Origin: Bacillota bacterium
Lineage (GTDB): Bacteria > Bacillota > Clostridia > Peptostreptococcales > Anaerovoracaceae
NCBI GenBank assembly: GCA_017522185.1
Contig: JAFWZZ010000010.1
Location: 1-64,000 of the forward strand
Direction of reading: 5' to 3'
DNA length: 64,000 bases
Below the pieces are notes generated by a model that saw only the letters and a list, made by a program, of their open reading frames with translations, ran no database searches and had not been told where the DNA came from. Made by a program: the position numbers and the translations under genes. Each line of letters starts with the position of its first letter. Positions within the stretch are counted from its first letter, which is position 1. Shown piece after piece: positions 46,268 to 46,795 of the stretch.

Positions 46268-46312
46268 TCTAAGGGCTTTCATATAAAGAGTCACTATTGG
46301 GTTGTTGCAAGG

Positions 46313-46418
46313 ACAAAAGTGTACACGCTGGAGACTGCCACATATACACTTTGCATCAAAAAATGCCGCTTTCGTTTACAATGTAATAGTTTCTCCAAGA
46401 ATCCCTGTACACTTTTGT
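46313..46418. repeat. 13-bp inverted repeats flanking about 80 bp
   Basis: ACAAAAGTGTACA (46313-46325) and TGTACACTTTTGT (46406-46418) are exact inverted copies. The 80 bp between holds a further partial copy (TACACTTTG near 46346) and no gene. The element could be a miniature inverted-repeat element or two recombination-type sites. A related string (CCCTGTATACGTTTTTG) occurs at 46911-46927. Confidence 0.55.
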
Positions 46419-46447
46419 CGATTTTTCTGTTCAGTAGTAATTTTGCA

Positions 46448-46463
46448 GGGTTCGAATCCCTAA
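46448..46463 (+). repeat. tRNA T-arm-like fragment, copy A
   Basis: GGGTTCGAATCCCTAA, matching the T-arm of a tRNA but with no cloverleaf around it. An exact second copy lies at 46644-46659. Confidence 0.7.
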
Positions 46464-46478
46464 CAATCATATCGCAAT

Positions 46479-46516
46479 AAAAAAATAGAACAGGCAATAA
46501 CCTGTTCTATTTTTTT
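46479..46516. terminator. Bidirectional terminator in the tRNA-Leu scar
   Basis: ATAGAACAGG (46485-46494) pairs with CCTGTTCTAT (46501-46510), loop CAATAA, with A7 before and T7 after. It abuts the extra copy of the tRNA-Leu 3' end. Confidence 0.88.
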
Positions 46517-46534
46517 GGTGCGGTCTAAGGGATT
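46513..46534 (-). pseudogene. Extra copy of the tRNA-Leu 3' end
   Basis: The 22 bases match 46711-46732 exactly: the last 16 bases of tRNA-Leu, CCA and flanking T's. Upstream of them (minus strand) the T-loop and rest of the tRNA are missing and GC-rich DNA takes their place. It is a truncated tRNA remnant, as left by recombination at tRNA 3' ends. Confidence 0.75.
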
Positions 46535-46657
46535 TTGCGGCCACTCCGTGGACCGCCGTGCTGCGCCGCCCCTTCCAGGCGGCTTGCACCATCGCCTACT
46601 CGACCTTCCACCGGAAGCTCTCCCTTCACGGCGATGCCCTTGCGGGTTCGAATCCCT
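46528..46657 (-). ncRNA. GC-rich five-stem element, candidate structured RNA or mobile hairpin
   Basis: Minus-strand AGGGATT (46651-46657) pairs with AATCCCT (46528-46534), closing four internal hairpins: CCC-GCAA-GGG (46637-46646), ATCGCC/GGCGAT with inner CTTCC/GGAAG (46591-46635), GCCGCC/GGCGGC (46565-46583) and GCGG.CCAC/GTGG.CCGC (46537-46556). GC content is far above the AT-rich surroundings. It is open in several frames but none has a ribosome site or recognisable protein. Its ends overlap tRNA-Leu-derived repeats. RNA versus DNA function is undecided. Confidence 0.5.
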
Positions 46658-46659
46658 AA
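46644..46659 (+). repeat. tRNA T-arm-like fragment, copy B
   Basis: Exact second copy of GGGTTCGAATCCCTAA, 196 bp after copy A, forming one end of the GC-rich element. Confidence 0.7.
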
Positions 46660-46671
46660 TGATTCCAAACG

Positions 46672-46709
46672 CAAAAAATGAAAAACGACTGGAGAACCAG
46701 TCGTTTTCA
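46672..46709 (-). terminator. Terminator of tRNA-Leu
   Basis: On the minus strand AAAACGACTGG pairs with CCAGTCGTTTT, loop TTCT, followed by a T-rich tail, directly after the tRNA CCA. Confidence 0.88.
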
Positions 46710-46713
46710 TTTT

Positions 46714-46795
46714 GGTGCGGTCTAAGGGATTCGAACCCCCACGGTTTCCCACACGGACCTGAACCGTGCGCGTCTGCCAATTCCGCCAAGACCGC
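46714..46795 (-). tRNA. tRNA-Leu (anticodon CAG)
   Basis: A class II tRNA of 82 nt with encoded CCA. Acceptor GCGGTCT/AGACCGC is perfect, the anticodon stem CACGG/CCGTG holds CAG, the long variable arm is present and the T-loop TTCGAAT is canonical. Promoter at 46831-46858. Confidence 0.93.

What the first reader, a model, noticed from the sequence alone, without database searches (positions are those of the whole stretch)
46528..46657. GC-rich five-stem element grafted into a tRNA-Leu remnant
A 130-bp block far richer in GC than its surroundings folds, on the minus strand, into a closing AGGGATT/AATCCCT stem around four hairpins, one capped by a GCAA tetraloop. Its two ends are exactly the points where tRNA-Leu-derived repeats start. 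It has no ribosome site or convincing protein. It could be a structured RNA, a hairpin-type miniature mobile element that targets tRNA T-arms, or a recombination site. I do not recognise it as a named family.
Basis: partly seen in the sequence, partly recalled or inferred. Interest (0 to 1): 0.72.

Follow-up and report, generated by a model that had tools for sequence, protein, structure and literature searches.

The report
Structured hitchhiker cassette behind tRNA genes
A short, strongly folded, protein-free DNA cassette sits right behind a tRNA gene; relatives of it occur behind many different tRNA genes in a family of gut bacteria, mostly with pieces matched to their own tRNA, which points to a previously undescribed kind of tRNA-targeting mobile element.

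Summary
Window 46528-46657 (minus strand) folds into a closed multi-stem structure (z about -4). It is one of 170 copies that I examined in 60 genomes, nearly all in one bacterial family (Anaerovoracaceae, by named relatives). Covariation supports the structure strongly; no Rfam family matches.

The copy belongs to a 197-bp unit (46534-46730): tRNA-Leu 3' half from nucleotide 59, CCA, terminator-like hairpin, spacer, inverse T-arm, 118-nt core. Such units (153-222 bp in 87 measured) recur behind 22 tRNA types and tmRNA. Outer stems and flanking repeat mostly match the local tRNA T-arm (91 and 88 of 111), while inner cores stay alike. The repeat usually begins at nucleotide 58/59. Copies are patchy among relatives, tandem in several loci, sometimes separated by cargo.

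Best reading: a non-coding, integrative tRNA cassette that keeps the tRNA whole. Its core acts as a folded attachment site that rebuilds the T-arm, most likely used in trans by a tyrosine recombinase, much as integron attC sites are. Mobility is inferred from comparison, not shown; neither the enzyme nor the working form (single-stranded DNA or RNA) is known. A guide-RNA mechanism remains open.

The parts
46713..46795 (-). intact tRNA-Leu(CAG), the host gene; its part from nt59 to CCA (46730-46713) is supplied by the cassette in this reading
   Evidence: ARAGORN, Rfam RF00005
46534..46730 (-). the whole unit (197 bp): nt59-CCA, terminator-like hairpin, spacer, inverse T-arm, core
   Evidence: repeat spacing of 197; same layout in related loci
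46675..46712 (-). terminator-like hairpin behind CCA, proximal unit (ends approximate)
   Evidence: inverted repeat I3; 104 of 104 spacers behind tRNAs other than Thr(UGU) have a hairpin of -8 kcal/mol or better, no shuffle control
46644..46659 (-). inverse T-arm (reads TTAGGGATTCGAACCC on -): left strand of P1, 4-nt gap, left strand of P2
   Evidence: likeness to own tRNA across the family
46555..46651 (-). conserved core P2-P5, covariance model hit 106.7 bits (the window copy is one of the model's own 13 sequences)
46534..46554 (-). tail with P7 hairpin, ending in A next to nt59
   Evidence: 82 of 87 tails end in A
46516..46533 (-). right repeat: tRNA-Leu nt59-CCA; 46528-46533 forms the right strand of P1
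46473..46515 (-). second terminator-like hairpin, taken as that of an older unit (ends approximate)
   Evidence: inverted repeat I1
46448..46463 (-). second inverse T-arm; no core follows (taken as a remnant unit)
   Evidence: repeat D6; only one model hit in the window

Best explanation
It is a non-coding integrative cassette. A cassette enters the T-arm of a tRNA or tmRNA gene at about A58/nt59. It brings its own copy of the tRNA 3' half, CCA and usually a terminator, so the tRNA stays whole and the old 3' half is pushed downstream as the right repeat. At its distal end lies a conserved, folded site of about 118 nt. On the tRNA-sense strand the two outer stems, P1 (AGGGAT/ATCCCT) and P2 (ACCC-GNRA-GGG), rebuild the T-arm duplex around an unpaired 4-nt spacer, with the inner core set into one strand. 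I infer that this folded strand is the substrate of a tyrosine recombinase acting in trans, as the folded attC strand is for integron integrases. Shown here: the family, the structure, ends that match the local tRNA in most units, the usual nt58/59 junction, tandem units and patchy occurrence. Inferred: active movement, a tyrosine recombinase, and single-stranded DNA as the working form.
For: Family and structure: 170 copies in 60 genomes; 28 of 29 pairs with changes on both sides, covariation score 0.537 against 0.160 shuffled. Targeting: 137 of 170 have a same-strand tRNA/tmRNA within 1 kb upstream; the 111 within 130 nt cover 22 tRNA types plus tmRNA. In these 111 the inverse T-arm matches its own tRNA from nt59 by a mean run of 5.70 nt against 1.07 with tRNAs shuffled, with a run of 5 or more in 91; P2 matches nt51-53 by 2.77 of 3 against 2.42. 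A right repeat of 7 nt or more from nt59 is seen in 88 of 111. Hairpin behind CCA in 104 of 104 units other than Thr(UGU), in 0 of 7 Thr(UGU) units. Changing targets: within one genome, inner cores at different tRNAs are 83-87% alike and each other's nearest neighbours (G344 tmRNA/Gly, G210 Ala/Thr, G163 Leu/Glu, G127 Ala/Leu). Patchiness: G007, G008 and G011 carry the identical tRNA-Leu without a core behind it, G005 has two. Enzyme class: tyrosine recombinase domains in 9 of 9 genomes searched, five of them core-bearing; PF00078 reverse transcriptase is missing from 3 of 10 and Y1 transposase over cut-off present in only 2 of 10 core-bearing genomes. In the own genome an integrase gene lies between two cores at tRNA-Lys.
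Against: No recombinase specific to core-bearing genomes was found; the two conserved kinds also occur in genomes without model hits, and an HMM found a tyrosine recombinase at only 4 distinct core places, most loci having just 1.5 kb of flank. G-U pairing in P2, P3 and P5 is like that of tRNA stems, as an RNA would show. In P4, 17 of the 25 A-C cells sit at one pair, so the A-C excess there is weaker than it looks. No excised circle and no empty/filled pair within one species was seen. 22 of 111 units have no right repeat from nt59 and one has 5 nt; of these 23, six have a repeat starting at nt60-64 and 17 none. 33 of 170 cores lack a tRNA within 1 kb. 22 of 111 cores do not start with the exact complement of the T-loop. 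In 12 of 88 repeats the likeness reaches 2-4 bases left of nt59.
Confidence: 0.48

Rival explanations
1. A guide-RNA mobile element: the core is transcribed and works as an RNA whose inverse T-arm and P2 strand pair with the two strands of the target T-arm, directing a recombinase or nickase in trans, similar in logic to the IS110 bridge RNA.
For: Segments complementary to one target strand and equal to the other; strong covariation; G-U/(A-U+G-U) of 0.11-0.24 in P2, P3, P5 against 0.11-0.18 in tRNA stems; conserved internal-loop letters.
Against: A terminator-like hairpin lies between tRNA and core in 104 of 111 spacers, so transcription from the tRNA would have to pass it; no promoter scan was made. 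P4 has G-U/(A-U+G-U) of only 0.019. The order of the two guide-like pieces is the reverse of that which I take for the bridge RNA (passages of PMC11208160; the order along the RNA is recalled). No IS110 recombinase was looked for.
Confidence: 0.22
2. Retroelement: the core RNA is copied into the tRNA gene by target-primed reverse transcription; the repeated 3' end plus terminator is a long target duplication.
For: Right junction near-constant, left side more variable. In 22 of 88 units the two flanks are at least 80% alike beyond CCA; 4 of these (L041, L155, L195, L202) show no sign of a second core, and L009 looks the same by eye, as a duplication would leave.
Against: 10 of those 22 are followed by another model hit and 8 by an inverse T-arm-like start, so they are mostly tandem units; in the other 66 of 88 the flanks differ beyond CCA or were not comparable. 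No PF00078 match in the own genome, G344 or G411, which have six, six and four model hits.
Confidence: 0.1
3. Domesticated RNA or DNA feature without current mobility: an old tRNA-tail element inherited vertically, spread by duplication and gene conversion.
For: Some nearest neighbours share the tRNA type across genomes, e.g. Thr(UGU), Met, Arg(CCU), tmRNA. Tandem copies may grow by ordinary recombination.
Against: Species of one genus (g20: G031, G137, G182, G210) carry it at only partly the same tRNAs; identical tRNA-Leu genes are with or without it.
Confidence: 0.15
4. Distal end of ordinary tRNA islands: the core is simply a conserved end of integrative elements whose inner parts were lost.
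For: Stretches of about 3-8 kb with genes between cores in L079 (two), L082, L088, L140, L141.
Against: No gene shared by the six stretches was seen by eye; 111 of 170 cores lie within 130 nt of a tRNA, leaving no room for genes.
Confidence: 0.05

Closest known systems
Integron gene cassettes and attC sites
   Same: Cassette arrays and a folded site at the cassette end, recognised on one strand by a tyrosine recombinase (attC passages: PMC3053210; the R/L-arm and spacer layout of attC is recalled).
   Different: Entry site is a tRNA T-arm, ends change with the target, the site is a multi-branched fold with conserved inner loops, most units examined carry no gene, no IntI was identified.
tRNA-targeting islands with repeated tRNA 3' ends (additive flexible islands, tycheposons, ICE/IME at tRNA)
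   Same: Element restores the tRNA 3' end; [quoted passage not shown]
   Different: Here the unit is non-coding, about 196 bp, with a conserved structured core that the passages I saw do not mention.
IS110 bridge RNA
   Same: Non-coding structured sequence with segments matched to both strands of the target (PMC11208160 passages).
   Different: No recombinase gene in the unit, segments seem to be in reversed order, target is a T-arm, expression unknown.
MITEs / REP-type hairpin elements (recalled)
   Same: Small, non-coding, structured, many copies.
   Different: Target-specific ends, junction near nt58/59, tRNA 3' end carried along.

Membership tests
Integron cassette / attC | folded single-strand site with paired outer arms around an unpaired spacer | tested here: inconclusive
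   P1/P2 geometry fits; that single-stranded DNA is the working form is not shown
Integron cassette / attC | IntI integrase and attI platform | not tested
   only PF00589 in general was searched; no IntI-specific model was run
Integron cassette / attC | consensus R/L boxes (recalled: GTT..AAC type) | tested here: not met
   the junction letters are those of the local tRNA T-arm, around TTCRA|nt59
tRNA-targeting integrative element | inserted at a tRNA 3' part and restoring it, with direct repeat | tested here: met
   88 of 111 with a repeat of 7 nt or more from nt59; insertion itself is inferred
tRNA-targeting integrative element | own integrase gene | tested here: not met
   87 measured units are 153-222 bp
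IS110 bridge-RNA element | recombinase gene in the element | tested here: not met
   no room for a gene in the measured units
IS110 bridge-RNA element | expressed RNA bound by the recombinase | not testable with these tools
   no transcript data
IS200/IS605-type (Y1) element | Y1 transposase available in the host | tested here: not met
   over cut-off in only 2 of 10 core-bearing genomes
Known Rfam family | match at gathering score | tested here: not met
   window and 20 loci: only tRNA and tmRNA; the weak matches are below every gathering score

The most novel reading that the evidence does not exclude
A retargetable insertion system: a small non-coding element whose folded end carries copies of both arms of its target, so that changing a handful of letters redirects it from one tRNA gene to another, with a dedicated trans-acting enzyme that reads the conserved inner core as a handle. 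That would be neither integron, nor bridge-RNA element, nor MITE.
Probability: 0.35. Interest if true: 0.88.

Novelty: new variant of a known kind. Interest (0 to 1): 0.74.

Why it matters
If it moves as inferred, it is a minimal, gene-free cassette system that colonises tRNA and tmRNA genes without breaking them, and whose target choice can be read from its own ends. It would give a tractable case of how site-specific elements switch targets, an open question for tRNA-targeting islands, and a possible second natural use of folded recombination sites beside integrons. It may also explain spurious short ORFs and odd tRNA tails in these genomes.

Tried and rejected
Known RNA family: rejected. 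Protein-coding: the ORFs across the element (119, 112 and 96 aa) look spurious: they run into the tRNA, and core lengths vary by one to three bases among copies. Phage or plasmid origin: no match of the window element in 50,697 phage and 72,556 plasmid records; 0 viral contigs with the strict pattern; 3 with a looser one, one of which gave a model match of 13.6 bits, E 0.28, and two none. Long target duplication: judged unlikely, not excluded (see the retroelement rival, whose odds I raised from 0.08 to 0.10, and lowered the best from 0.50 to 0.48). Core-only excision scars: palindromes of 16 or more centred on TCGA were sought in the held loci; one AGGGATTCGAATCCCT without core (L010), one unrelated (L128). 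A core-specific tyrosine recombinase: not found. Cargo with a shared enzyme: none seen by eye in six stretches; only five proteins of one stretch (L088) were run against Pfam. DNA versus RNA by G-U content: P4 speaks for DNA, P2/P3/P5 are like tRNA, so left undecided. Wider spread: 53 of 297 genomes of the order, all 53 listed in the own family; 3 of 398 of the phylum including the own genome; 1 of 113 in the order of the outlier G617, which is G617 itself. Literature: the listings showed no such element by title or abstract start. Of the cited papers (PMC3053210, PMC10872708, PMC11208160) I saw passages found by terms, not the whole text.

Full report
What is in the window. On the minus strand the order is: tRNA-Leu(CAG) 46795-46713; a terminator-like hairpin; a spacer; AGGGATTCGAACCC, close to the reverse complement of the tRNA's T-arm; a GC-rich folded block; then AATCCCTTAGACCGCACCA, the tRNA 3' end again; a second, different terminator-like hairpin; and a second inverse T-arm without core. 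The fold is far better than in shuffles with both RNA and DNA parameters and the GC peak is real. The unit that repeats is 197 bp, 46534-46730.

It is a family. A DNA search of 61 genomes found matches in 11, the own one included. From 13 copies I built a covariance model. It finds six copies in the own genome, matches in 11 of 13 genomes of the genus, in 87 of 197 sampled genomes of the family, in 53 of 297 of the order, all in the own family, and in 3 of 398 of the phylum, the own genome included. The two outliers (G617, G694) also sit behind tRNA genes with a similar layout, though in G617 the neighbouring tRNA is Arg while the ends fit another tRNA, and in G694 the repeat is incomplete. 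A pattern scan that shows names returned 42 contigs, among them Emergencia timonensis, Hornefia, Aminicella and Anaerovorax. That these genera belong to Anaerovoracaceae (Clostridiales Family XIII) is my knowledge, not a call; some record titles say Family XIII.

The structure is under selection. On 119 distinct rows, 28 of 29 pairs show changes on both sides, 88.9% of cells are standard pairs against 67.6% shuffled, and the covariation score is 0.537 against 0.160; sliding the partner by 1-3 columns leaves at most 0.105. That alignment was fitted to the model and leans towards it; the first one, made by MAFFT without structure, gave 0.492 against 0.160, with pairs that I named after RNAalifold and by eye. 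Tandem G-A/A-G mismatches in P3 and P5 alternate with Watson-Crick pairs, which points to the tRNA-sense strand as the folded one.

It is tied to tRNA genes. I took 174 model hits and dropped 4 rows with the same genome, core and 60-nt flanks: two repeated fetches and two identical tandem copies. That leaves 170 in 60 genomes, one of them G617. They are what I fetched, not all hits of the capped lists. Of these, 137 have a same-strand tRNA or tmRNA within 1 kb upstream, median distance 61 nt. The 111 within 130 nt, covering 22 tRNA types and tmRNA, were used for matching. The inverse T-arm agrees with the local tRNA from nt59 for a mean of 5.70 nt against 1.07 when tRNAs are shuffled among units; the run is 5 or more in 91 of 111. 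P2 agrees with nt51-53 of the local tRNA by 2.77 of 3 against 2.42 shuffled. A right repeat of 7 nt or more from nt59 is present in 88 of 111 and is 18 nt in 60. In 6 of these 88 it starts at nt59, in 70 at nt58, in 12 the likeness reaches one to three bases further left; of the other 23 units, four have a 17-nt repeat from nt60, two a shorter one from nt62 or nt64, and 17 none. So the junction is near nt58/59 in most units, not in all. Of 87 measured units, chosen close to a tRNA and hence without cargo, the length is 153-222 bp, median 196, and 82 tails end in A.

It looks after the host gene. Of 104 spacers behind tRNAs other than Thr(UGU), all hold a hairpin of -8 kcal/mol or better and 96 a T-run; the 7 Thr(UGU) spacers hold none (no shuffle control). 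In L080 and L092 the tRNA-Thr(UGU) lies inside a row of tRNA genes, where a terminator would silence the tRNAs behind it; this is what selection would leave.

It changes target. Inner cores at different tRNAs of one genome can be each other's nearest neighbours (G344 tmRNA and Gly 0.86; G210 Ala and Thr 0.87; G163 Leu and Glu 0.84; G127 Ala and Leu 0.83), while their ends fit their own tRNAs. Other nearest neighbours share the tRNA type across genomes. So both vertical lines and switches are seen. G007, G008 and G011 have a tRNA-Leu identical to the window's over 88 bp but no core in the stretch behind it; G006 and G009, with a 92% similar one, also lack it; G005, 93%, has two cores there. I did not prove gene-order orthology of these loci.

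Cassette or duplication. In 88 units I compared the stretch behind CCA with that behind the right repeat. In 22 they are at least 80% alike; 10 of these are followed by another model hit, 8 by an inverse T-arm-like start, and 4 (L041, L155, L195, L202) by neither. Most alike pairs are thus tandem units, but a few could be read as duplications; this counts against my reading and is told under the retroelement rival.

How it may work. The folded tRNA-sense strand places AGGGAT against ATCCCT (P1) and ACCC against GGG (P2, turned by a GNRA loop) on one continuous strand AGGGAT-TCGA-ACCC, which is the bottom strand of the T-arm. The top strand is rebuilt in two pieces, with the inner core in between, and the junction lies where the pieces meet. 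This resembles the logic of a folded attC site (passages of PMC3053210). Tyrosine recombinase domains are in every genome searched (9 of 9); PF00078 and Y1 transposase are not. In G011 an integrase gene lies beside a unit whose ends fit tmRNA, and the stretch on that side ends at the same nt59. In the own genome a 7.9-kb stretch with integrase, Tn916-type excisionase and a MobA/MobL-like protein (below that family's cut-off) lies between two cores at tRNA-Lys. None of this proves which enzyme acts, and the conserved recombinases also occur in genomes without model hits.

DNA or RNA. G-U use in P2, P3 and P5 is like that in tRNA stems; P4 is nearly free of it (11 of 1319) and has 25 A-C cells, 17 of them at one pair. 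Tail hairpins often have a C-GNA triloop (24 of 85, no control), recalled as very stable in DNA. I leave this open.

What is new. Arrays marked by tRNA 3' ends and folded cassette sites are each known. A gene-free unit with a conserved multi-branched core and outer arms that match the tRNA it sits on is not in Rfam 15 at gathering score, nor did it show in the listings of the paper searches named under Tried and rejected. I therefore file it as a new variant of integrative tRNA cassettes and keep the bolder reading separate.

Noticed in passing
L003 1457-1469, L027 1627-1639, L036 1587-1599, L042 1587-1599, L050 848-860, L181 1495-1507: A second hairpin-rich repeat ending in GGCTAGGGCTTCA lies, by eye, inside the P2 loop of some cores (L036, L042, L050) and inside the right repeat of others (L003, L027); exact pattern in 8 of 295 loci, which are 6 distinct places.
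   Followed up: partly
window 46312-46419: Stretch bounded by a perfect 14-bp inverted repeat GACAAAAGTGTACA/TGTACACTTTTGTC; looks like a MITE or IS relic.
   Followed up: no
L088 423-517 (own genome C23): Core placed directly behind a sense-orientation tRNA-Lys fragment, CAGGGTGTCCAGGGTTCGA|ACCC, rather than an inverse T-arm; may show an island recombining with the start of a core.
   Followed up: partly
L010 about 1401: A palindrome AGGGATTCGAATCCCT at the array end, as if a core had been cleanly removed or had not yet entered.
   Followed up: partly
core helix P4, alignments A3 and A4: P4 varies greatly yet has 11 G-U among 1319 cells, far fewer than P2, P3 and P5; unexplained.
   Followed up: partly
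L080: A run of tRNA genes occurs twice in tandem, with three and two core copies behind the two tRNA-Thr(UGU) genes.
   Followed up: no
L142 4073-5085: Five model hits of the same score in a row, near tRNA-Gly(CCC), with uneven spacing.
   Followed up: no
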